Source: Qipengyuania gaetbuli (GTDB lineage Bacteria; Pseudomonadota; Alphaproteobacteria; Sphingomonadales; Sphingomonadaceae). Taken from it: a DNA stretch of 64,000 bases. The notes under the pieces are model-generated. The model made no database searches. It was not told the origin of the DNA and saw only the letters and a list, made by a program, of their open reading frames with translations. This document shows positions 1,558-24,464 of this stretch, one piece after another. The position numbers and the translations under genes are program-made. Position 1 is the first letter of the stretch; every line of letters starts with the position of its first letter. Location: positions 770,501 to 834,500 of the forward strand of contig NZ_JAIVLR010000002.1 of the NCBI RefSeq assembly GCF_020524765.1. Direction: 5' to 3'.

Positions 1558-1719
1558 GGCTTCACCTCTCTCGAAGAAAGTACTGAAGCGACCTGTCGTT
1601 TTTTGGATTGCCGCGACTCTCTCTCTCGCCGCGGCGCAGGGAAAATACGCCTTTCACCCGAAAAATCCAGCATCGGGAGGGGAAGGGCGCGATGATGGTG
1701 GAAGCCGTGACAACTTCAC

Positions 1720-1748
1720 TTGGCGTTCAGCGGGGGTCTGGTTATAGG
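1720..1748 (+). promoter_or_regulatory. Candidate promoter directly in front of bamD
   Basis: TTGGCG (1720-1725) and TATAGG (1743-1748) are separated by 17 bp, resembling a housekeeping -35/-10 pair. Initiation 7-10 nt downstream would fall at about 1755-1758, at the bamD ATG itself, giving an almost leaderless mRNA. Alternatively bamD is transcribed from farther upstream. Inferred by eye. Confidence 0.3.
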
Positions 1749-11507: not shown

Positions 11508-12599
11508 GTGACCCGTACCCTTGTGACAATTACGCTGCTGCTGGTCAGCACCTTCGCCTTGCTGGGAACCTGCGTGTACCAGCCGGGCGAAAGCGCCTCG
11601 CAATTCGGCGACCGTATCAGGCTGCCGCAGGCGAACCGCTTCAAGGCCCCGCCGCCGCTGGATGACCAGCAAAAGGCGCTGCAGGACCGGCTGGCCGCCA
11701 TCGGCAAGGCTTTCCCGGGCGAGGTCGGGATTGCCGTGGTCGAGGTAAGCAGCGGCGCACGGATGCACTTCGAAGGTCGCAAGCCGTTTCCGCAGCAGAG
11801 CGTCAGCAAGCTGTGGGTCGCCATGACCGCGCTCGACCTCGTCGACCAGGGGGCGCTCGACCTTGCCGAGCCGGTCAGTATCGAGCGCCGTGACCTTACC
11901 CTATTCCACCAGCCGATCCGCGAAATCGTGCGTACGCGCGGGCGCTACGACACCGACTATTTCGACCTGTTCGAACGGGCGCTGACTGAAAGCGACAACA
12001 CCGCGAACGACCGCCTGCTGCGCCGTGTCGGCGGCCCGACCGCGGTCGACGGTTTCCTGCGGCGCGAGGGGATTACCGGTGTCCAGTTCGGGCCGGACGA
12101 GCGGACCAAGCAAAGCGCGATCGCGGGACTCGAGTGGAACCCCTCGTTCTCGATGGGACGCGGCTTTTACGATGCGCGCGACAGTCTGTCGCCCGAACGG
12201 CGCAGGCAGGCGTTCGAGAGATATCTCGCCGACCCGGTCGACGGTGCCAGCGCCATCGGCATCGCGCAGGCGCTTGCGCGTCTAGCCAAGGGCGACATTC
12301 TCTCGCCCGCTTCGACCAGCTTCATTCTCGGCACGCTGGAAAGAACGAAGAGCGGCCCCAACCGGCTGAAAGGCGGCACGCCTGCAGGATGGGTCATGGC
12401 GCACAAGACGGGCACCGGGCAGGTCTTCGACGGCGAGCAGTCGGGCTATAACGATGTGGGCGTGCTCAGGGCGCCGGACGGCTCGCAATATGCGATCGCC
12501 GTGATGATCGGGCGCACGCGCAGTTCGTTCTCGAGCCGGTTCGAGATGATGCAGGCCGTGACCCGCGCCGTGGCGGACCACCACTTGTCACGCAACTAG
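11508..12599 (+). CDS. Class A-like serine beta-lactamase
   Basis: 363-residue exported serine hydrolase of the class A beta-lactamase fold. Motifs: SVSK (Ser98, Lys101) for SxxK, SDN at 162-164 and KTGTG at 300-304. The hydrophobic N-terminus (MTRTLVTITLLLVSTFALLG) is a signal sequence; the following Cys22 has Thr at -1, so lipidation is doubtful. The translation starts with GTG at 11508. The SDN-to-KTG distance is about 30 residues longer than in TEM, and I cannot find an ExxLN omega-loop motif, so the deacylating Glu166 is not evident and real beta-lactam turnover is uncertain. It ends sharing CTAG with the convergent DUF2459 gene. Confidence 0.85.
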   Translation: MTRTLVTITLLLVSTFALLGTCVYQPGESASQFGDRIRLPQANRFKAPPPLDDQQKALQDRLAAIGKAFPGEVGIAVVEVSSGARMHFEGRKPFPQQSVSKLWVAMTALDLVDQGALDLAEPVSIERRDLTLFHQPIREIVRTRGRYDTDYFDLFERALTESDNTANDRLLRRVGGPTAVDGFLRREGITGVQFGPDERTKQSAIAGLEWNPSFSMGRGFYDARDSLSPERRRQAFERYLADPVDGASAIGIAQALARLAKGDILSPASTSFILGTLERTKSGPNRLKGGTPAGWVMAHKTGTGQVFDGEQSGYNDVGVLRAPDGSQYAIAVMIGRTRSSFSSRFEMMQAVTRAVADHHLSRN

Positions 12600-13291: not shown

Positions 13292-14190
13292 CGGATGCGG
13301 CTCCGGCGCAGCCACAGGATCGACCAGTCGCCATTGGTCACGCGCCGCGCGAGGCGGAAGCCCTGCGCACGGTAGGCGCGGCGCACCTCGCGTTCCTGTG
13401 TCTGCAGCAGCCCTGCAAGCAGCAGGCTGCCGCCCGGCGCAACGGCGGGCGCGAAATCCGGTGCGAGTTCGACCAGCGGCCCGGCAAGGATATTGGCGAT
13501 CAGCAGGTCATAGGGCGCGCGGGCGTGCAGCAAGGCATCGTCCATGCCCGGCGCGATGATCATGGTGAGGGCGCCCGGGCCGTCGCCCATCGTCACGCCG
13601 TTCATGCGCGCATTGTCCTCGACCACGCCCGCGCAGACGGCATCGATGTCGGAAGCGGTCGCCTTGGCGTGCGGCCACAGGTGCATGGCTGCAAAAGCGA
13701 GCAGGCCGGTGCCCGTGCCGATGTCGGCATGGTTGCGCACCGTCAGCCCCTCGCGCTTCATCAGGTCGAGCATGGCGAGGCAGGCGGCAGTGGTCTCGTG
13801 CTGGCCGGTGCCGAACGCCTGGCTGGCGGGAATGGCGAAATCGACCATTGCGGGGTCGGCCGGGAAATCGGGCGTGCGCACGTGGAAGCGTCCGGCACGG
13901 ATCGGCTCCACGCCCTGCTGGCTGAGCGTAACCCAGTCCTGTTCGGGCAGCTTTTCCGCACCGAGTTCGGGGGCACCGCCCTCGAACAGCGCGGCAACCG
14001 CCTTCCGGTCGGCGGCGGTCGGCTTTCGTTCGAGCCAGACTTCAAGGATCCAGTCGTCGGGCTTGTCTTCGGCGATCTCGCGGCCCGATACGACGAGTTC
14101 GGGAGGGAAATCCCAGGCCTCGTCATGCGCGAGGAGGGCAGCCTGCACCACGCGCTTGGGCGCCTCTGTGTACATTCTCCAGGCGGTCAT
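13288..14190 (-). CDS. prmA: Ribosomal protein L11 methyltransferase
   Basis: 300-residue cytoplasmic enzyme that trimethylates ribosomal protein L11 using S-adenosylmethionine. Central motifs fit PrmA: the family's AFGTGTHPTT appears as AFGTGQHETT, the SAM site as DIGTGTGLLAF, and the catalytic NPPY-like loop as LLIANILAGPLVEL. The N-terminal substrate-recognition domain is divergent, as is common in alphaproteobacteria. Start at 14190, where ATGA overlaps the stop of the metallo-beta-lactamase gene; it in turn is coupled to the DUF2459 gene by GTGA. The link of a ribosomal-protein methylase with a beta-lactamase is probably just operon packing. Confidence 0.92.
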   Translation of the reverse strand: MTAWRMYTEAPKRVVQAALLAHDEAWDFPPELVVSGREIAEDKPDDWILEVWLERKPTAADRKAVAALFEGGAPELGAEKLPEQDWVTLSQQGVEPIRAGRFHVRTPDFPADPAMVDFAIPASQAFGTGQHETTAACLAMLDLMKREGLTVRNHADIGTGTGLLAFAAMHLWPHAKATASDIDAVCAGVVEDNARMNGVTMGDGPGALTMIIAPGMDDALLHARAPYDLLIANILAGPLVELAPDFAPAVAPGGSLLLAGLLQTQEREVRRAYRAQGFRLARRVTNGDWSILWLRRSRIR

Positions 14191-15101
14191 TTTGCCGCTT
14201 CTTCCGCCAGCCGCTTGTCGAGGCGTTCGCCGATCCGCTCAGGATACCAGGCGCAGCCGTCGGCGAGCAGGAGGCCGCTTTCGCCCTTCATCCGCGCCAG
14301 CATGTCGCTTGCGCTGGGGTGAGGCGTCATCAGCATATCGCATTGCGCCTTCGCCAATCGGTCGAGCCCGGCGCGGAAATCGGCGAGGTACTCGGGATGG
14401 TCGGAAAAGCGGTAATCGTCCGCACTGATCGGCGAGAGGCTGTCGGCATAAACCAGCCAGCGGCAGTCGCTGCCTTCGCATTCGCGCCACTGCCAACTGA
14501 GTGCGCCGGGCGTATGGCCTGGAGTGACGATCGGCTTCAGCTTTTTCGGCCCGACCGGATCGCTCTTGCCGCCTTCGAGGAGGAAGACGAGCGTGCTGAG
14601 AGGTCGGAACGCGGGATGGTCCGATGCTGCCTGCGGATCTTCTGCTGAGGGAAGGCCCGAGTGCAGCGTCTTCGTGGCGGCCGGAGAGGAATAGACCGTG
14701 GCCCCGGTGGCGTACTGGACGCTGGCAATCCCGCCGACATGGTCGAAATGCTCGTGGCTCAGCGTGATCGTGTCCACGTCCTTCGGATCGAACCCCAGCT
14801 TCGCGATGTTCGCGAGGACGACTTTCGCACCTTCCTCGGTCCCGGTGTCGATCAGCGAGTGACCGTCCTCATGCGTGACGAGGATCGCGGAAATCCCGCA
14901 CGTGCCGACGTAATAGGTGTCGCCGTATATGCGGAAGGGTGGGGCGGGCTTGTCCCAATCGTCCCAGTCTTCGCAGGCGTCGAGAAAGGCTTGCTGGTCG
15001 GCGGGGACGGCGCGCGGGGAAGGCGCGTCCGCGATGGTCGGAGCAGCCGCGCAGGCGGCGATGGCCAGCAGCGCCGGTGCGATCAGAAACCTAGCGGACA
15101 T
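14187..15101 (-). CDS. Subclass B3-like metallo-beta-lactamase
   Basis: 304-residue exported metallo-hydrolase with a lipoprotein-type signal (LAIAAC, Cys17). The zinc ligands follow the B3 pattern: HEHFDH at residues 116-121 (H116, H118, D120, H121), H196 in TPGHTPG and H261 in TPHPS. The B3-typical ADSLSPISADDYRF near residue 220 is present too. B3 enzymes hydrolyse penicillins, cephalosporins and carbapenems, but many environmental relatives are weak, so activity cannot be assumed. The ATG at 15101 has GGAG 6 nt upstream and lies 11 nt inside the SDR gene. Its stop overlaps the prmA start (ATGA). Confidence 0.87.
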   Translation of the reverse strand: MSARFLIAPALLAIAACAAAPTIADAPSPRAVPADQQAFLDACEDWDDWDKPAPPFRIYGDTYYVGTCGISAILVTHEDGHSLIDTGTEEGAKVVLANIAKLGFDPKDVDTITLSHEHFDHVGGIASVQYATGATVYSSPAATKTLHSGLPSAEDPQAASDHPAFRPLSTLVFLLEGGKSDPVGPKKLKPIVTPGHTPGALSWQWRECEGSDCRWLVYADSLSPISADDYRFSDHPEYLADFRAGLDRLAKAQCDMLMTPHPSASDMLARMKGESGLLLADGCAWYPERIGERLDKRLAEEAAK

Positions 15102-18556: not shown

Positions 18557-19093
18557 ATGGGTTCGACGAATAAACGGGCAGCCCTGCGCAAGCGACTATC
18601 GAGCTACTGGAAGCTCGAACTGGGCAATGCGCTGCTGATCCCTGCTGCCGTATTCTATCTCGCATCGGGAGAGGGAAATGGCATCGGTTGGCTCACGCTT
18701 TTCAGTTTCCTGCCGATGTGCGGATTACTGTTGCTTGGGAGCGCGTATTGGCGCGCGAAACTGGCAGGGGTGGAAGGCGATCGATCCAAGCTGAGCACGG
18801 TGCTCGGGGCTGCGGACCGGCTGGATCGCTTGCTGTTCCTGCTGGCATTTGCAAGCCTCACGGCAGCGATTGCTTCCTGGGTATTGCCATCGCTGTCGGT
18901 ATCGCTGGCTGACCGCATTGCGGCAACGGTGTGCAGCGTCCTCGCGATGCTCGAGTACGTGAACTACTACCATCGCCAGTTGCAGCACTTCGATCATGGC
19001 GAGGATTTTCGCCGGCTGCTTGGCGGCAAGGGATTTCGCCGGTCGCAGATGTCTGTGGACCTCCAGCAGTACCGCGCCGGGCGCATAAGGTGA
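18557..19093 (+). CDS. Membrane protein of unknown function
   Basis: 178 residues, not recognised. It starts with a basic cytoplasmic segment (MGSTNKRAALRKRLSSYWK), then about four hydrophobic helices (residues 25-45, 50-68, 92-115, 118-140). The C-terminus is hydrophilic and basic (EYVNYYHRQLQHFDHGEDF...). The ATG at 18557 has AAAGG upstream. It sits 26 nt after sdhA where sdhB would be expected, and its stop overlaps the next start by one base (TGATG). It is thus probably co-transcribed with sdhCDA or coupled to the following metallopeptidase-like lipoprotein gene, with which it may function. Confidence 0.7.
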   Translation: MGSTNKRAALRKRLSSYWKLELGNALLIPAAVFYLASGEGNGIGWLTLFSFLPMCGLLLLGSAYWRAKLAGVEGDRSKLSTVLGAADRLDRLLFLLAFASLTAAIASWVLPSLSVSLADRIAATVCSVLAMLEYVNYYHRQLQHFDHGEDFRRLLGGKGFRRSQMSVDLQQYRAGRIR

Positions 19094-19965
19094 TGAACGC
19101 TGGAATCCGGTTGCTTGTGGGACTTGCTGGAGGCCTCGCCCTGGCATCATGCGCTGCTGTCGGGACACCTCCATCGCGAATTGCTGCCGAGCCCTTCTAT
19201 GCCAAGCACGTATCGGCAAGCGGACTTCCAATCCTGTCTTCCGCGCGCGTGTCCGATAAGGCATTGCTCGCCGCGCGGGACATGGCGCGTGACATGCTTT
19301 CGTACCGTCCCGAGCTGGCCGAATGGCTCGCGGCAAATGACTACCGAGTGGCGATCATCGCGCAGGACGAAGCGTTGCTTGACCTGCCCGACAAGGCGCA
19401 CTGGACCAAGCCTGCGCGCGACGATCCGCGGCTGACCCGCTGCGAACTCAAGCATTACGACACGCGCATCGGTGCGAAGAGCGACCGGCAATACTGGGAC
19501 GAGCGCGCGCGCGGAATCGGCGGCGATCGCACCGTCGGTTCGGAGGAGGACGTGCTGGGCCTGCCGACCTCGCGCTATTACGGTGAGACGATCTTCGTCC
19601 ACGAGATGGCGCACAACGTCCTGTTCGCGATCGAGGCGGTCGATCCGGCGCTCTATCGCGAGATCGAAGCGGCGTATGCCAATGCGCTGGCGAAGGGCCT
19701 CTGGCTCAACGAATACGCCACCACCACCATCCAGGAATACTGGGCGGAAGGGACGCAGGTCTGGTTCAATTCGAACCGGCTGGTCGTTGTCGACGGGCGC
19801 CGCATCCTGAACCACCCCGATCTCGAGGCCTACGACCCGCGGCTCTATGCCGCCCTCGCGCGCGCCTATGGCCCAAGGCACCGTCTCAAGTCCGATCCCT
19901 TCGCGATGAGCGCGGCCCGCGTTCCGCCGGGGCCGATCCCGGAGAACACGGCAGAGGTCTGCTAG
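19093..19965 (+). CDS. Lipoprotein with a zinc metallopeptidase (HExxH) site
   Basis: 290 residues. The signal peptide ends in a lipobox (LALASC, Cys20). HEMAH at 170-174 is a zinc-protease motif, and QEYWAEG at 214-220 supplies a glutamate some 45 residues later as the third ligand, the gluzincin arrangement. The NEYATTTIQEYWAEGTQVWF stretch resembles secreted lethal-factor-like peptidase domains; this is a resemblance by eye, not a search result. The start ATG overlaps the previous stop (TGATG). The target is unknown, perhaps cell-envelope protein. It ends on a CTAG shared with the convergent cyclophilin gene. Confidence 0.75.
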   Translation: MNAGIRLLVGLAGGLALASCAAVGTPPSRIAAEPFYAKHVSASGLPILSSARVSDKALLAARDMARDMLSYRPELAEWLAANDYRVAIIAQDEALLDLPDKAHWTKPARDDPRLTRCELKHYDTRIGAKSDRQYWDERARGIGGDRTVGSEEDVLGLPTSRYYGETIFVHEMAHNVLFAIEAVDPALYREIEAAYANALAKGLWLNEYATTTIQEYWAEGTQVWFNSNRLVVVDGRRILNHPDLEAYDPRLYAALARAYGPRHRLKSDPFAMSAARVPPGPIPENTAEVC

Positions 19966-20603
19966 TCGCTGGCGGCGGGTTCCAGCCGGCGCGCCTCGAT
20001 GATTTTCACCGGCTGGGCCAGCATCTGGCCCTTCATCCAGCCTTCGCCCTTGTCGGGATCGGTCGGCATGGCATGGATGGCCTGCACCACCTCCATGCCA
20101 TTCGTGACGTAGCCGAACACGGCATAGCCGTTCTGCCAGACAGGGTCTTCGGACTTGGGATCGGCATCCATGCCGGTCGAATCCTGCAGGAAGATCGAGA
20201 AATCGCCATTGGCCGTGCCGGGTTCGCCCATCGCCATCGACAGCGCGCCCTTGGTGTGGCTGAGGCCGGTCACGGTCGTCGGTTCGTGCGGGATGCCGGG
20301 CAGTACGCGGTCCGGATCCCATTGCGTGCCGCCCTGGATCAGCCCGTTGGGCTGGTCCCCCCAGTCGAGTTTCATCGCGCGGTAGAACACCGTGCCGTCG
20401 AACCGGTCCTCGTCGACATATCGCAGAAAATTGCCGGCAGTGATGGGCGCGCGCTCGGTTTCGAGTGCCACGGTGATGTCGCCTGCAGTGGTTTCGAGGA
20501 CCACCATGGTGCGTGCCGGCTCCGCAGGCGAGGGCGCTGCTTCCTCCTGCGCTGCAAGGGGCGATGCAAGAAGGGCGAGAGCGGCGGCCAGAAGTCTCTT
20601 CAT
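19962..20603 (-). CDS. Periplasmic cyclophilin-type peptidyl-prolyl isomerase
   Basis: 213 residues. A Sec signal (MKRLLAAALALLASPLAAQ) precedes a cyclophilin domain that isomerises proline peptide bonds during folding. Recognisable parts are TTAGDITVALETERAPITAGNF at its start, the catalytic Arg in TVFYRAMK, GLIQGG and ALSMAMGEPGTANGDFSIFL. The ATG at 20603 follows from the signal peptide; a much longer in-frame extension upstream has no support. The 217-bp region to blaI must hold both promoters. It converges with the metallopeptidase lipoprotein gene, sharing CTAG as stop. Confidence 0.88.
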   Translation of the reverse strand: MKRLLAAALALLASPLAAQEEAAPSPAEPARTMVVLETTAGDITVALETERAPITAGNFLRYVDEDRFDGTVFYRAMKLDWGDQPNGLIQGGTQWDPDRVLPGIPHEPTTVTGLSHTKGALSMAMGEPGTANGDFSIFLQDSTGMDADPKSEDPVWQNGYAVFGYVTNGMEVVQAIHAMPTDPDKGEGWMKGQMLAQPVKIIEARRLEPAASD

Positions 20604-20750: not shown

Positions 20751-20787
20751 GTTTACAAGCGTAGTCTTGACAACTACACACGTAAAC
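20751..20787. promoter_or_regulatory. 37-bp inverted repeat, candidate BlaI operator with -35 box
   Basis: The outer arms are GTTTAC (20751-20756) and GTAAAC (20782-20787), the inner arms GTAGT (20761-20765) and ACTAC (20773-20777). Read another way, it holds two TAC-N4-GTA sites, TACAAGCGTA (20754-20763) and TACACACGTA (20775-20784), exactly 21 bp apart. BlaI/MecI-family repressors bind TACA/TGTA dyads. TTGACA (20767-20772), a perfect -35, lies between the two sites, so a bound dimer pair would block it; no good -10 is visible 17 bp on. It lies 34 nt before the blaI start. Confidence 0.6.
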
Positions 20788-20820
20788 GAATTCGGCGAAA
20801 CCGAAGGGGAGATACAAGCG

Positions 20821-21210
20821 ATGGCCAAGCGTAAACAGGCACCGGGCGAGCGGATCAGCGAAGCTGAGCACGCGGTCATGGAGGCCCTGTGGACCGAAAA
20901 CCCGCTTTCGGCCGCCGATGTTTGCGACCGCGTCTGCGCGGCGAATGACTGGTCGATCCCGACGGTGAAGACCCTGCTCGGCCGCCTGGTATCGAAAGGG
21001 GCCGTGGGCACGGAACCCGAAGGCCGCCGCTTCCTCTATCATCCGCTGATCGAACGCTCCGACTATGTCGGCGGCGAATCGCGCCGTCTCGTCAATCGCC
21101 TGTTCGGCGGCCGCGCCGCGCCGCTCTTCGCCCACCTTGCAGAAAACGAAGCGCTCACCGACGCCGATCTGGAAGAGATCGAGGCGCTCCTCAAGGAGAT
21201 GCGCAAATGA
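20821..21210 (+). CDS. blaI: BlaI/MecI-family transcriptional repressor
   Basis: 129-residue winged-helix repressor of the BlaI/MecI/CopY family. The DNA-binding part is clear: ISEAEHAVMEALWTENPLSA, then the recognition helix region WSIPTVKTLLGRLVSKGAVG and a wing EGRRFLYHPLI. The C-terminal third is helical and acidic, the dimerisation region. The ATG at 20821 is chosen because AGGGGAG lies 9 nt upstream; an earlier TTG is not needed. Its stop overlaps the next start (ATGA), pairing it with a BlaR1-like protease that would inactivate it. A candidate operator is just upstream. Confidence 0.92.
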   Translation: MAKRKQAPGERISEAEHAVMEALWTENPLSAADVCDRVCAANDWSIPTVKTLLGRLVSKGAVGTEPEGRRFLYHPLIERSDYVGGESRRLVNRLFGGRAAPLFAHLAENEALTDADLEEIEALLKEMRK

Positions 21211-22889
21211 CCGAGCTCCTGCGCGAATACTGGGACTGGTTCCTCTTCGACACGCTGGTCTGGACCGGCGCGCTGATCGCACTGGTCATGCTGCTGCGTC
21301 GCCCCGTGGCACGCTATTTCGGCTCGGGCGCTGCCTATGCGCTCTGGTTCGTCCCGCTCGCACGGCTGGTCCTGCCGCCGTTCACCCTGCCAGCCTGGAT
21401 GGGGCCGACGCGCGAGAGCGTGCCCGTCAGCTTCGAAACCGCCCCGATGGTCCTGCCCGAACGCGCGGGCTCCGCCTCCACCTATTTCGCCGACATGGCC
21501 GCAACGCAGCCTGCGCCGTCGACATTTCCCGATCCCACCGATCTCGTCATGCCGCTCGTCGCGATCTGGTTGCTGGGTGCCGTAATCATGCTGGTGCGCC
21601 GCTTCTGGCTCTATTTCGAGCTGCGCCGCGACCTGCTGGAGGATGCGCGGCCCGTGGGCGAAGAAGGCAGCGTTCGCCTAATCGAAACGCCCGCGATTTC
21701 CGGCCCGATGGCGTTCGGCGTGATCGACCGCGTCATCGCGCTGCCGGAAGGCTTCATGGCGAGCCGCGACCGCATGTCGCGCGACCTCGCTATTGCCCAC
21801 GAACTCGCACACCATCGCGGCGGCGACCTGATCGTCAACATGGCGGTCCAGCCGCTGTTCGCAATCCACTGGTTCAACCCGCTCGGCTGGCTGGGCTGGA
21901 ACGCGCTGCGCCGCGACCAGGAAGCCGCCTGCGATGCCCGCGTCGTGGCCGCCCGCCCGCGCGAGGAGCGCGCCACTTACGCCGGCATCATCGCCGATTT
22001 CGCTCGCCATCCGCAGGGAACGCCGCGTCCGGCGCTCGCCGCGCCGATGGCCTGTCCGGTTCTGGGGGACAAGTCGATCATCCATCGCTTGAGGAGTTTG
22101 AACATGTCCGACATTTCGCCGCGCCGCCGCCTTGCGGGACGCGCCACCCTTGCCAGCGCGTTTCTCGCGGTGCCGCTGACCGCTTCGGTCTGCTTTGCAG
22201 AAGCCGCTGCCGCGCCGACGCCGCCGGCTGCACCCGAAGCGCCGCTGACCTGGGTCATGCCGGTCCCGGCTGCCCCGCTGGCGCCGCCGCCCCCCGACGC
22301 GCCGCCCGCTCCCGAAGTGGACGGGGATGTCGATGTCGACATCGATATCCAGCAGGACGGTGAAGTCCGCGTGGAGCGCCGCGTCATCGTCGACAAGGAC
22401 GGGGAGCGCCGCGTCGTCCGTCGTTTTCGCCGCGACATGAGCGAGGAAGAGCGCGCCGAGCTGGAAGCGGACCTTGCGGAAATGGAAGCGGACCTTGCCG
22501 AAATGCGCGCCGATACCGCGATGAGCCATGCGAACATGCGCCGCGAAATCACGCTCGCCGTGGCTGAGGCCCATGCCGAAGCATACGAGGCCCGGGCAGA
22601 GGCAATGGCAGCGGCCGGCGAAGCCATCGCCATGTCCGACATCGCCCGTGCAAGCGCACCGCGTGTTGTGATGAAGTGCAAGGACAAGACGAACATCGTC
22701 GCTACCGAAGTGGACAGCAAGGGGCGCACCACCATGTTCGTCTGCGAGGCCAATGCCGACAAGATCGCGCTGACCGCGGTGAAGTCGGCCCGCAAGGCGA
22801 TCGCCGCCGACCGCAATCTCAGCGACAGCGAGCGTGCCGAAGCCTTGCGCGCTATCGACAAGGAAATTGCCGAGCTGAAGCACAAATAG
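21207..22889 (+). CDS. BlaR1-like M56 membrane metalloprotease with an atypical C-terminal sensor
   Basis: 560 residues. N-terminal membrane helices (about 15-32, 42-60, 112-132) enclose an M56 zinc-protease domain with HELAH (His198, Glu199, His202) and QEAACDARV supplying the third ligand (Glu239), as in BlaR1/MecR1. A fourth helix (~312-330) leads to a proline-rich linker (332-370). The rest differs from BlaR1: instead of a penicillin-binding domain with SxxK and KTG there are an acidic segment (VDGDVDVDIDI), a charged coiled coil (410-475) and a short end with two cysteines (491, 513). It probably signals to BlaI by proteolysis, but the stimulus is unknown. Confidence 0.85.
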   Translation: MTELLREYWDWFLFDTLVWTGALIALVMLLRRPVARYFGSGAAYALWFVPLARLVLPPFTLPAWMGPTRESVPVSFETAPMVLPERAGSASTYFADMAATQPAPSTFPDPTDLVMPLVAIWLLGAVIMLVRRFWLYFELRRDLLEDARPVGEEGSVRLIETPAISGPMAFGVIDRVIALPEGFMASRDRMSRDLAIAHELAHHRGGDLIVNMAVQPLFAIHWFNPLGWLGWNALRRDQEAACDARVVAARPREERATYAGIIADFARHPQGTPRPALAAPMACPVLGDKSIIHRLRSLNMSDISPRRRLAGRATLASAFLAVPLTASVCFAEAAAAPTPPAAPEAPLTWVMPVPAAPLAPPPPDAPPAPEVDGDVDVDIDIQQDGEVRVERRVIVDKDGERRVVRRFRRDMSEEERAELEADLAEMEADLAEMRADTAMSHANMRREITLAVAEAHAEAYEARAEAMAAAGEAIAMSDIARASAPRVVMKCKDKTNIVATEVDSKGRTTMFVCEANADKIALTAVKSARKAIAADRNLSDSERAEALRAIDKEIAELKHK

Positions 22890-22916
22890 CGTTCGCCATC
22901 ACCGACAACCGAGAAG

Positions 22917-22943
22917 GCCCGGCGTGAAAGCGTCGGGCTTTTT
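22917..22943 (+). terminator. Intrinsic terminator after the blaI-blaR operon
   Basis: GCCCGGCG (22917-22924) pairs with CGTCGGGC (22931-22938), 8 bp with one G-U, loop TGAAAG, followed at once by TTTTT (22939-22943). It lies 27 nt past the blaR1-like stop and should separate blaI-blaR from creD, implying creD has its own promoter. Confidence 0.85.
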
Positions 22944-22959
22944 CGTATCCAGCGCCGGG

Positions 22960-22975
22960 TTCACAAGGCATTCAG
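22960..22975 (+). promoter_or_regulatory. Cre/Blr-tag-like direct repeat upstream of creD
   Basis: TTCAC (22960-22964), six bases, TTCAG (22971-22975): one mismatch from the TTCAC-N6-TTCAC tag that CreB and BlrA response regulators recognise in enterobacteria and Aeromonas. A related decamer repeats 23 bp apart, TCACAAGGCA (22961) and TCACAAAGCA (22984). It lies 50-65 nt upstream of the creD start. No creB or creC gene is in the window. Confidence 0.4.
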
Positions 22976-22993
22976 TTCATCGCTCACAAAGCA

Positions 22994-23024
22994 CGTTTCG
23001 TCGCAGACGTAAGGAGACGAAACG
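22994..23024 (+). promoter_or_regulatory. Hairpin carrying the creD ribosome binding site
   Basis: CGTTTCGTC (22994-23002) and GACGAAACG (23016-23024) form a perfect 9-bp stem with a 13-nt loop; the AAGGAG ribosome site (23011-23016) sits in the loop and the ATG begins on the next base. Such a fold could limit translation. It might instead be a DNA operator. Inference from the sequence only. Confidence 0.45.
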
Positions 23025-24410
23025 ATGCGAGACAGATCGCCCACGGCAAAACTATTCATCGCGGGGCTGGTCGGCCTCGCGCTCCTGATACCCATGATCA
23101 TGGTCTATGGCCTCGTGTCCGACCGGCAGGAACAGGCGCGGGTCGCGCAGGACGCGATCACTGCCGGCGCCGGCGGGGCGCAGACTATTTCCGGTCCCGT
23201 GCTGGCGATCCCGTTTCGCAGCGAACAGGAGGTCCAGACCGTAGTGGACGGCCAGACCGTAACCCGCCCGCGCACGGTGCGTTCGGAGATATTCCTCTTC
23301 CCGCAGACCCATGACCTCACCACGACGCTCGAACCCGAGTTGAAGCGCAAGGCCATCTACGAGACGGTCACCTACCTCGCGAAGATGGAAGGCAAGGCGC
23401 GCTTCGAACTGCCCGATGACCTCGCACGCTACGGCGTGAAGCGCGAGCAGCTCCTGATCGAAGAGGCGGAAGTCCGCTTCTCGACCTTCGATCCGCGCGG
23501 CCTGCGCTCTGCGGCAGATGTCCGTGCAGGCGGCAAGCACGTCGACCTGACGCCGGGCAAGGGCGGCGCACAGGGCGGTGGCGGTTTCCACGGGCCGGTC
23601 CAATGGAGCGGTACTTCGGCGCTGACCGTCGACTATGCCTATGTCCTTCGCGGTAGCCGCGCCCTCGCGCTGACGCCCCAGGGCGGGGAGACGCGCTGGA
23701 CGGTGCGCTCCCCCTGGCAGCACCCTGGCTTCGGCGGTGGTTTCCTGCCCGACGAAAGCGAGATCGGACCCGATGGGTTCAGCGCCCTCTGGACGATCGG
23801 CAACCTTGCGCTGGGGCAGGGCATGATGAGCATGACCGACAATCCGTCGGCCCAGCCGCCTGTCCCGCAGGCCGAATATCGCGGAGCCGAAATGGCAGAA
23901 GCGGAGATCGGCCTTGCCACGATCAACCTCGTCGAACCGGCCGATATCTACGCGCAGGTCGACCGCAGCGTGAAATACGGCTTCCTGTTCATTGGCTTCA
24001 CCTTCCTCGCCTTCCTGCTTTTCGACGTGGTCGGCGGCGCGCGGGTGGCTGCAGCGGAATATCTGCTGACAGGCGCTGGGCTAGTGCTGTTCTTCGTCCT
24101 GCTGCTGGCCTTTGCCGAGATTACCGGCTTTGCACTGGCCTATGTCATCGCCAGCGCGGCGATCATCGGGCTGCTCACCGCCTATAGCGCGGCAGTGCTC
24201 GGCGGATGGAAGCGGGCAGGCTTCATCGGCGGGCTGCTGACGCTGCTCTATGGCGGCCTCTACGTCCTCCTCAGCCTCGAGGAAGCGTCGCTGATCGTCG
24301 GCGCGCTGGCGATGTTCTTCGCGCTCGCATCGGTCATGTATGCGACCCGCAATCTCGACTGGTCGACGGCGGTGCGCCGCGAGGAGGGCGAGGGCACTTT
24401 CGCCCCCTGA
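23025..24410 (+). CDS. creD: CreD-like inner membrane protein
   Basis: 461-residue membrane protein of the CreD family, associated in other bacteria with the CreBC/BlrAB response to beta-lactams and cell-wall damage. The layout fits: an N-terminal helix (residues 8-30), a periplasmic domain of about 290 residues beginning with the family's SGPVLAIPF, and five or six closely spaced helices at the C-terminus (about 330-445) with FLAFLLFDVVGG and ALAYVIASAAIIG. The ATG at 23025 has AAGGAG 8 nt upstream. It is a separate transcript after the blaI-blaR terminator and ends in its own strong terminator. The biochemical role is unknown. Confidence 0.9.
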   Translation: MRDRSPTAKLFIAGLVGLALLIPMIMVYGLVSDRQEQARVAQDAITAGAGGAQTISGPVLAIPFRSEQEVQTVVDGQTVTRPRTVRSEIFLFPQTHDLTTTLEPELKRKAIYETVTYLAKMEGKARFELPDDLARYGVKREQLLIEEAEVRFSTFDPRGLRSAADVRAGGKHVDLTPGKGGAQGGGGFHGPVQWSGTSALTVDYAYVLRGSRALALTPQGGETRWTVRSPWQHPGFGGGFLPDESEIGPDGFSALWTIGNLALGQGMMSMTDNPSAQPPVPQAEYRGAEMAEAEIGLATINLVEPADIYAQVDRSVKYGFLFIGFTFLAFLLFDVVGGARVAAAEYLLTGAGLVLFFVLLLAFAEITGFALAYVIASAAIIGLLTAYSAAVLGGWKRAGFIGGLLTLLYGGLYVLLSLEEASLIVGALAMFFALASVMYATRNLDWSTAVRREEGEGTFAP

Positions 24411-24425
24411 CCTTTCGCAAGGAAG

Positions 24426-24459
24426 AAGGGCGCGGGTCTTATCGAGCCGCGCCCTTTTT
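24426..24459. terminator. Strong intrinsic terminator of creD
   Basis: AAGGGCGCGG (24426-24435) and CCGCGCCCTT (24447-24456) form a perfect 10-bp stem around an 11-nt loop; the right arm runs into TTTTT (24455-24459). It lies between convergent creD and the zinc metallopeptidase gene, 16 nt after the former and 6 nt from the latter's stop, so it may serve both. Confidence 0.85.
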
Positions 24460-24464
24460 CATGC

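What the first reader, a model, noticed from the sequence alone, without database searches (positions are those of the whole stretch)
20751..24459. BlaI - BlaR1-like protease - CreD block as a candidate non-canonical envelope-stress system
A BlaI-type repressor gene overlaps a BlaR1-like M56 protease gene, and creD follows as a separate transcript with its own leader. In known systems BlaI/BlaR1 controls a beta-lactamase and creD answers to CreBC/BlrAB; here they are side by side, with no creB or creC and no beta-lactamase in the block. Two beta-lactamase-type genes lie 6-12 kb upstream. The likely role is sensing of wall damage or another periplasmic signal, but the stimulus and targets are open.
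Basis: partly seen in the sequence, partly recalled or inferred. Interest (0 to 1): 0.7.

Follow-up and report, generated by a model that had tools for sequence, protein, structure and literature searches.

The report
BlaI-protease operon beside separately controlled creD
A marine bacterium carries a self-controlled repressor-protease pair, related to a penicillin-sensing switch but without its penicillin sensor, next to an envelope gene (creD) that looks controlled by a different regulator, which in many relatives appears to act on both.

Summary
The genes are real: blaI 20821-21210, an M56 protease gene overlapping it (21207-22889), a terminator, then creD 23025-24410. The nearest named relatives are Qipengyuania (Erythrobacteraceae). 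The M56 protein keeps the BlaR1-like membrane/protease part but lacks the penicillin-binding sensor; its C-terminus is a small domain with two cysteines invariant in close relatives.

Two controls are predicted. (1) BlaI binds two operators (20751-20766, 20772-20787) over its own promoter. Among 149 family genomes the strict operator occurs in 48, all with M56, mostly in front of blaI; it is in front of none of 48 creD genes read, and no further dyad lies in the window, so none at its two beta-lactamase genes. In this genus a second exact site precedes a TonB receptor, usually with an amidase. (2) creD carries an 11-bp direct repeat, TTCA-N7-TTCA, spaced like the CreB tag. The same box lies upstream of the BlaI operators in many relatives (not here) and before a conserved PepSY-like/response regulator/kinase operon, the candidate regulator.

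So: two transcription units, no predicted BlaI-creD link, a shared response-regulator input in relatives. creD and M56 occur independently; adjacency is common, not obligatory. New variant of known kinds; all regulation is inferred from sequence.

The parts
19962..20603 (-). divergent neighbour: secreted cyclophilin-type peptidyl-prolyl isomerase (not part of the operon; its 5' end faces the BlaI operators)
   Evidence: PF00160 E 2.6e-26
20751..20766 (+). BlaI operator dyad 1, GTTTACAAGCGTAGTC
   Evidence: exact match to GNYTACRNNYGTARNC; dyad pairs conserved in relatives
20772..20787 (+). BlaI operator dyad 2, AACTACACACGTAAAC, 21 bp from dyad 1
   Evidence: one mismatch to the same pattern; dyad pairs conserved in relatives
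20752..20780 (+). putative promoter: -35 TTTACA 20752-20757, 17-bp spacer, -10 TACACA 20775-20780, each inside a dyad
   Evidence: read from the sequence by eye; the consensus scan did not list it; weak
20821..21210 (+). blaI, 129 aa repressor
   Evidence: PF03965 E 4.7e-31; MecI/BlaI chains matched in the PDB
21207..22889 (+). M56 membrane metalloprotease, 560 aa, BlaR1-like TM/protease part
   Evidence: PF05569 E 3.7e-43; H198 E199 H202, E239, D243 invariant in 20 aligned sequences, own included; Foldseek best hits are BlaR1
22644..22886 (+). C-terminal module of the M56 protein: beta hairpin with invariant Cys491 and Cys513 plus helical hairpin; candidate sensor
   Evidence: alignment of 20; AF2 mean pLDDT 91.6
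22916..22943 (+). intrinsic terminator after the M56 gene
   Evidence: hairpin -18.9 kcal/mol then T run; not listed by the scan
22960..22975 (+). 11-bp direct repeat box TTCACAAGGCATTCAG in the creD promoter
   Evidence: in relatives
23025..24410 (+). creD, 461 aa inner membrane protein
   Evidence: PF06123 E 7.4e-112; NCBIfam CreD equivalog 381.2 bits, cut-off 275
24422..24460 (+). terminator-like hairpin after creD
   Evidence: -30.6 kcal/mol with T run; not listed by the scan

Best explanation
Two neighbouring transcription units with separate controls. Unit 1, blaI-M56: BlaI dimers sit on two dyads that overlie the -35 and -10 of their own promoter and keep the operon low; an unknown periplasmic signal acts through the C-terminal two-cysteine module of the M56 protein, whose protease then removes BlaI, as BlaR1 does. 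In this genus BlaI also represses a TonB-dependent receptor gene, usually with a secreted amidase gene beside it, elsewhere in the genome. Unit 2, creD: switched on by an OmpR/PhoB-family response regulator bound to the TTCA-N7-TTCA direct repeat, most likely the regulator of the conserved PepSY-like/RR/kinase operon that bears the same box. In many relatives that regulator also has a box in place of the -35 of blaI-M56, so the two units share an activator there; in this genome and its nearest relatives read, the blaI box is absent. Shown: genes, architecture, motifs and their conservation. Inferred: binding, direction of control, proteolysis, signal, and which regulator reads the box.
For: BlaI operator: 61 blaI loci (chosen from 106 M56-bearing genomes): 49 have two TACN4GTA dyads, 10 one, 2 none; spacing 21 or 22 bp in 43 of 49; 50 shuffles of each upstream region gave no such pair. 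Strict operator over 149 genomes: 66 sites in 48 genomes, 54 in front of blaI-M56, 12 elsewhere; reversed control pattern 1 site; 48 of 106 genomes with M56 and 0 of 43 without have a site, p 2.4e-9 (phylogeny not corrected). Second target: an exact dyad ends 7 bp before the receptor start in the own genome and a matching dyad precedes the receptor in 5 of 7 same-genus genomes searched; an amidase gene is beside the receptor in 16 of 26 receptor loci. TTCA box within 150 bp (strict/relaxed): creD near blaI 15/18 of 20, blaI in those loci 16/19 of 20, other creD 11/14 of 28, all blaI 28/35 of 61; spacing altered by 1 or 2 bp: at most 1 of 20 at creD and 0 of 61 at blaI; five flanking gene classes 0 of 159. 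Box start 18-19 bp before the first dyad in 27 of 32 (loosest pattern). Same box upstream of the PepSY-like/RR/HK operon in 31 of 31 loci (30 strict, 1 relaxed); none of the other 10 Trans_reg_C loci of the own genome shows one within about 1.5 kb. No BlaI dyad at creD, 0 of 48.
Against: The box is absent from this genome's own blaI promoter even in the loosest form, from its near sibling G159 by eye and from named relatives L285-L287, so here the shared input is not predicted. 14 of 28 creD genes away from blaI lack the box even relaxed. The regulator is assigned by shared motif only. In the own genome the relaxed box has 12 sites against 4 for the reversed control, several of them inside genes, a modest excess. 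The loose one-mismatch BlaI pattern has 19 sites in the genome against 87 for its reversed control, so weak sites such as UrcA mean little alone. All loci are related and no test corrects for phylogeny; the motifs and the TTGAC contrast were found after looking. At bamD the repeat has an invariant spacer around a -35-like CTTGGC in 24 of 30, so part of the repeat can coincide with a promoter. The receptor dyad is in 6 of 26 receptor loci overall, outside the genus only in G077.
Confidence: 0.62

Rival explanations
1. One BlaI-run envelope stress module: BlaI represses blaI, M56 and creD together and M56 relieves all three on wall damage.
For: Side-by-side order, same strand in all 21 close pairs; creD deletion harms the envelope in Stenotrophomonas (PMC4689548, outline and abstract read).
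Against: No BlaI dyad, not even a bare TACN4GTA, within 200 bp upstream of any of 48 creD genes; terminator between; creD and M56 presence independent; same-genus G078 and G146 have blaI-M56 without creD, and G009, G054, G064, G092, G130 have creD in the same neighbourhood without M56.
Confidence: 0.08
2. Pure neighbourhood: creD and blaI-M56 are independent passengers of a variable slot between sdhA and ypfJ-bdh, and the TTCA repeats are promoter sequence of a common sigma factor rather than a regulator box.
For: Slot occupancy varies; bamD shows TTCACTTGGCGTTCA with an invariant spacer around a -35-like CTTGGC in 24 of 30; own-genome excess over control is modest (12 to 4).
Against: At creD, blaI and the RR operon the spacer varies while the 11-bp repeat stays; 10- and 12-bp spacings 0 of 20 at creD and 0 of 61 at blaI; box and TTGAC -35 exclude each other at blaI (1 of 13 loci with TTGAC have a box, 31 of 46 without; p 2e-4, not corrected for phylogeny).
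Confidence: 0.22
3. A true beta-lactam sensor: M56 here senses beta-lactams and BlaI controls one of the two beta-lactamase genes in the window.
For: Two beta-lactamase-type genes 5.7-9.3 kb upstream; BlaI matches MecI/BlaI chains and its operator resembles the classical one (recalled).
Against: No dyad with up to one mismatch elsewhere in the window; no BlaR-type sensor: 0 of 60 M56 proteins has both STxK and KTG after residue 330.
Confidence: 0.08

Closest known systems
BlaI-BlaR1 / MecI-MecR1 (Staphylococcus, Bacillus)
   Same: BlaI/MecI repressor, overlapping M56 gene, invariant HExxH, BlaR1 as nearest solved structure, dyad operators at the operon's own promoter
   Different: No penicillin-binding sensor domain, no beta-lactamase in the operon or behind a BlaI dyad in the window; candidate two-cysteine sensor; in this genus a TonB receptor (usually with amidase) behind a BlaI dyad
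CreBC-CreD and BlrAB with the cre/blr tag TTCACnnnnnnTTCAC (PMC3660660, passages read)
   Same: creD with a separate promoter and a TTCA direct repeat at the same 11-bp period
   Different: No creB beside it or over the CreB cut-off among the 11 Trans_reg_C proteins; second half-site mostly TTCAG/TTCAT instead of TTCAC; candidate regulator scores best to the QseB model (222.5 bits, cut-off 345) and lower to CreB (158.1, cut-off 273)
PmrA/QseB/PhoP-type autoregulated two-component systems
   Same: OmpR-family regulator with a direct repeat at its own promoter (the comparison with PmrA/QseB half-sites is recalled, from no call)
   Different: First gene of the operon is a small secreted PepSY-like protein (PF03413 E 0.0016, 19.2 bits, cut-off 24); signal unknown

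Membership tests
BlaI/MecI repressors (PF03965) | Penicillinase_R domain | tested here: met
   107.9 bits, cut-off 22.6
BlaI/MecI repressors (PF03965) | Dyad operators of TACA/TGTA type at the own promoter | tested here: met
   (classical operator consensus recalled)
BlaI/MecI repressors (PF03965) | NCBIfam named BlaI, MecI or CopY model at its cut-off | tested here: not met
   best CopY 87.3, cut-off 121.95; BlaI_of_BCL 79, cut-off 180
BlaR1/MecR1 beta-lactam sensor-transducers | M56 membrane protease domain with HExxH | tested here: met
BlaR1/MecR1 beta-lactam sensor-transducers | C-terminal penicillin-binding (class D-like) sensor domain | tested here: not met
   Pfam finds M56 only; no STxK or KTG after residue 330 in the own protein
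BlaR1/MecR1 beta-lactam sensor-transducers | NCBIfam blaR1_generic cut-off | tested here: not met
   84.8 bits, cut-off 400
BlaR1/MecR1 beta-lactam sensor-transducers | Signal-induced cleavage of BlaI | not testable with these tools
   needs biochemistry
CreD | CreD protein family | tested here: met
   381.2 bits, NCBIfam cut-off 275
CreBCD system | CreB regulator in the genome | tested here: not met
   none of 11 Trans_reg_C proteins over the CreB cut-off
CreBCD system | CreC kinase | not tested
   no search for creC was run
CreBCD system | cre/blr tag TTCACnnnnnnTTCAC | tested here: inconclusive
   own creD has TTCACAAGGCATTCAG, last base different, same spacing
OmpR/PhoB-type regulator box | Direct repeat at 11-bp period | tested here: met
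   spacing controls
OmpR/PhoB-type regulator box | Bound by the named response regulator | not testable with these tools
   shared motif only

The most novel reading that the evidence does not exclude
Sphingomonads use a BlaI-M56 switch with a redox- or ligand-sensing two-cysteine periplasmic module, not a penicillin sensor, to control its own level and the uptake and hydrolysis of an amide- or peptide-type compound (TonB receptor plus secreted amidase), while a PepSY-coupled two-component system governs creD and, in many species, activates the same BlaI operon: a two-input envelope circuit in the place of CreBC.
Probability: 0.3. Interest if true: 0.65.

Novelty: new variant of a known kind. 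Interest (0 to 1): 0.45.

Why it matters
M56 genes are common in this family (PF05569 at E <= 0.001 in 106 of 149 genomes, 104 over the cut-off), and the ones read lack the penicillin sensor, so their signals and targets are open. This gives base-level operators, a short target list and a named candidate regulator for creD outside CreBC, so a few promoter fusions and two gene removals in a harmless marine bacterium could settle what they do.

Tried and rejected
BlaI control of creD: looked for dyads 200 bp upstream of 48 creD genes, none. BlaI control of the beta-lactamases: no dyad in the window outside 20751-20787. Genus-wide TTCA box hits at tolR and glpX recur but overlap conserved start codons, so they were set aside as coding. 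Of 17 dyad sites of the own genome away from blaI (1 exact, 16 with one mismatch) only the exact one (receptor) and one mismatch site (UrcA) were followed; 15 were not. The strict 16-base operator pattern misses the own operators, which deviate from it (0 sites in G000). The C-terminal module gave no clear solved-structure match: Foldseek best E 0.41, VIA-align best Z 6.3, within the range of common arrangements; this does not show a new fold. Ten literature searches: among the titles listed (at most 15 per search, of up to 446 papers) I saw none on BlaI-M56 or creD control in Sphingomonadales; two searches had no hits. Most subscription journals are not held, so this is weak. Papers opened: PMC3660660, PMC8963506, PMC11870441, PMC7593790 (passages by term), PMC4689548 (outline and abstract); the rest were listings only.

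Selection: the 61 blaI promoters are the 30 best-scoring M56 loci plus 31 picked for creD linkage or closeness, of 106 M56 genomes. The 48 creD promoters are all creD genomes of the draw except the own. Some named loci are the same genomes as G handles (e.g. L298 and G146), so searches are not independent. L310 (a Lachnospiraceae hit without blaI) was left out of the counts. In one search two regulator matches (G107, G172) have a stop codon inside the aligned stretch.
Full report
What is there. The window lies in a 2.8-Mb genome in 4 contigs. The nearest named relatives by the M56 protein are Qipengyuania species. blaI and M56 share ATGA; a hairpin with a T run closes the operon; creD follows after 135 bp, with another hairpin behind it. 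blaI is the only Penicillinase_R gene found in the genome. The divergent neighbour is a secreted cyclophilin-type isomerase.

The M56 protein. Pfam finds only the M56 domain. H198, E199, H202, E239 and D243 are invariant in 20 aligned sequences, own included, and Foldseek of the AF2 model (mean pLDDT 72.3) puts S. aureus BlaR1 first (E 7.5e-8). The penicillin-binding sensor is missing: 0 of 60 M56 proteins read have both STxK and KTG motifs after residue 330, and 55 of 60 have two or more cysteines in the last 130 residues. In the 20 aligned sequences Cys491 and Cys513 are invariant; they lie in a beta hairpin followed by a helical hairpin (mean pLDDT 91.6). I take this as the likely sensor; that is inference.

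BlaI operators. In 61 blaI loci, 49 have two TACN4GTA dyads, 10 have one, 2 none; spacing is 21 bp in 30 and 22 bp in 13. The consensus is GAYTACRNNYGTARTC. In the window the dyads are 20751-20766 and 20772-20787, the only matches in 64 kb with up to one mismatch (9 of 100 shuffles reach two matches, so the count alone is not significant; position and conservation are what count). The strict form GAYTACANNYGTARTC was searched in 149 family genomes: 66 sites in 48 genomes, 54 in front of blaI-M56, 12 elsewhere, none in the 43 genomes without M56. Family-wide, then, the operon itself is the main target.

Other BlaI targets. The own genome has a second exact site to the looser pattern; it ends 7 bp before the start of a TonB-dependent receptor gene that is followed by a secreted amidase gene. 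A matching dyad is kept in 5 of 7 same-genus genomes searched (G078, G146, G150, G151, G159; G149 has a near match by eye, G160 none), with receptors 62-97% identical; over all 26 receptor loci it is 6 of 26. The amidase sits beside the receptor in 16 of 26; of the five same-genus loci with a dyad, four show it (not L261). Elsewhere the 12 extra strict sites lie before, among others, a related TonB receptor (G077), an S41 peptidase-like protein (G142), an acetamidase/formamidase (G018), a POT transporter (G020) and a DUF2807 protein (G147); four of nine proteins tested had no Pfam match. A one-mismatch site precedes a UrcA-family gene, but one-mismatch sites are no more frequent than the reversed control (19 against 87).

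The creD promoter. creD genes carry TTCA-N7-TTCA: 15 of 20 near blaI (18 with one half TTMA) and 11 of 28 elsewhere (14 relaxed). blaI has it in 28 of 61 (35 relaxed), and in 16 (19 relaxed) of the 20 loci with creD nearby; 17 of those 20 have it, relaxed, at both genes. Changing the spacing by one or two bases finds at most 1 of 20 at creD and 0 of 61 at blaI, and five neighbouring gene classes give 0 of 159. With the loosest pattern, 32 blaI boxes lie within 45 bp of the first dyad, 27 of them 18-19 bp before it, and loci with TTGAC there nearly all lack a box (1 of 13 against 31 of 46). That is the geometry of an activator box replacing a -35. Named relatives agree: dyads in 25 of 25 loci with blaI, relaxed box at blaI in 17 of 25, at creD in 9 of 10 (overlaps partly with the earlier genomes). 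In this genome the blaI promoter has no box even in the loosest form, and its sibling G159 has the same promoter apart from a few bases; L285-L287 lack it too. creD has the box in all of these.

The candidate regulator. Of 11 Trans_reg_C loci in the own genome only L176 has such a repeat near it. The operon is a small secreted protein (PepSY E 0.0016, below cut-off), an OmpR-family regulator and a histidine kinase. All 30 further genomes searched have the regulator, 87-97% identical in the family and about 70% in two other families. The repeat lies upstream in 31 of 31 loci, 30 strict and 1 relaxed. It is not CreB by the NCBIfam model (158.1 bits, cut-off 273) and scores best to QseB and PmrA, below their cut-offs. 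In the own genome the relaxed box pattern has 12 sites against 4 for the reversed control, several inside genes, so the regulon cannot be read off the motif alone.

Independence of the two units. M56 is in 106 and creD in 49 of 149 genomes; 36 have both, no association (odds ratio 1.19, p 0.70). 21 of the 36 have them within 6 kb, always same strand; in G120 creD is upstream of blaI, in G103 and G014 it is 3-4 kb upstream. In many genomes both sit between sdhA and ypfJ-bdh, a slot that either may occupy alone.

Known background. The cre/blr tag is TTCACnnnnnnTTCAC (PMC3660660, passages). [quoted passage not shown] BlaR1 cleaves BlaI after beta-lactam binding to its C-terminal sensor (PMC7593790, passages).

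Judgement. The gene calls are ordinary; the regulation is a new variant: a BlaI-M56 pair without penicillin sensor that mainly controls itself and, in this genus, a receptor gene usually paired with an amidase, beside a creD that carries a CreB-tag-like box probably read by another two-component system. None of the binding or signalling has been shown.

Noticed in passing
window 1715-1730 (+), before bamD 1758-2561: TTCACTTGGCGTTCAG; the 15 bases TTCACTTGGCGTTCA are identical before bamD in 24 of 30 genomes searched, around a -35-like CTTGGC and a CTATAG/TTATAG -10. Either a regulator box on a strong promoter or just a conserved promoter.
   Followed up: partly
L114:5106-5121 (own genome C1:685105), receptor L114:5129-7243, amidase L114:7260-8825: Exact match to the loose BlaI dyad in front of a TonB receptor/secreted amidase pair next to clpP-clpX.
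   Followed up: partly
L101:1501-1516 (own genome C1:1294643): One-mismatch BlaI dyad GATTACAGTTGTAGCT about 85-100 bp before a UrcA-family gene; conservation not tested, and such sites are at or below control level.
   Followed up: no
window 14187-15101 (-): Subclass B3 metallo-beta-lactamase over the NCBIfam cut-off; best-scoring but below-cut-off named families are EAM/ECM/EFM. A class A-like gene lies at 11508-12599.
   Followed up: no
creD promoters, e.g. window 22974-23010: Downstream of the box a second stretch, roughly TTCRTCGCTCACAAAGCACGNTTCRTCG, is also well conserved between creD genes by eye and is unexplained.
   Followed up: no
upstream regions, e.g. L022, L035, L043; own receptor promoter in L114: Recurrent GTCGTTCGTCGA-like sequence upstream of several genes, seen by eye; origin unknown.
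   Followed up: no
L190:1501-1516 (own genome C1:1144330): Relaxed TTCA box between an ECF-type sigma factor gene and a divergent secreted subtilase gene.
   Followed up: no
window 18931-19965 (+): Conserved reading frame (up to 87% identity in relatives) without a Pfam or NCBIfam match at the default thresholds; the overlapping minus-strand frame is less conserved.
   Followed up: no
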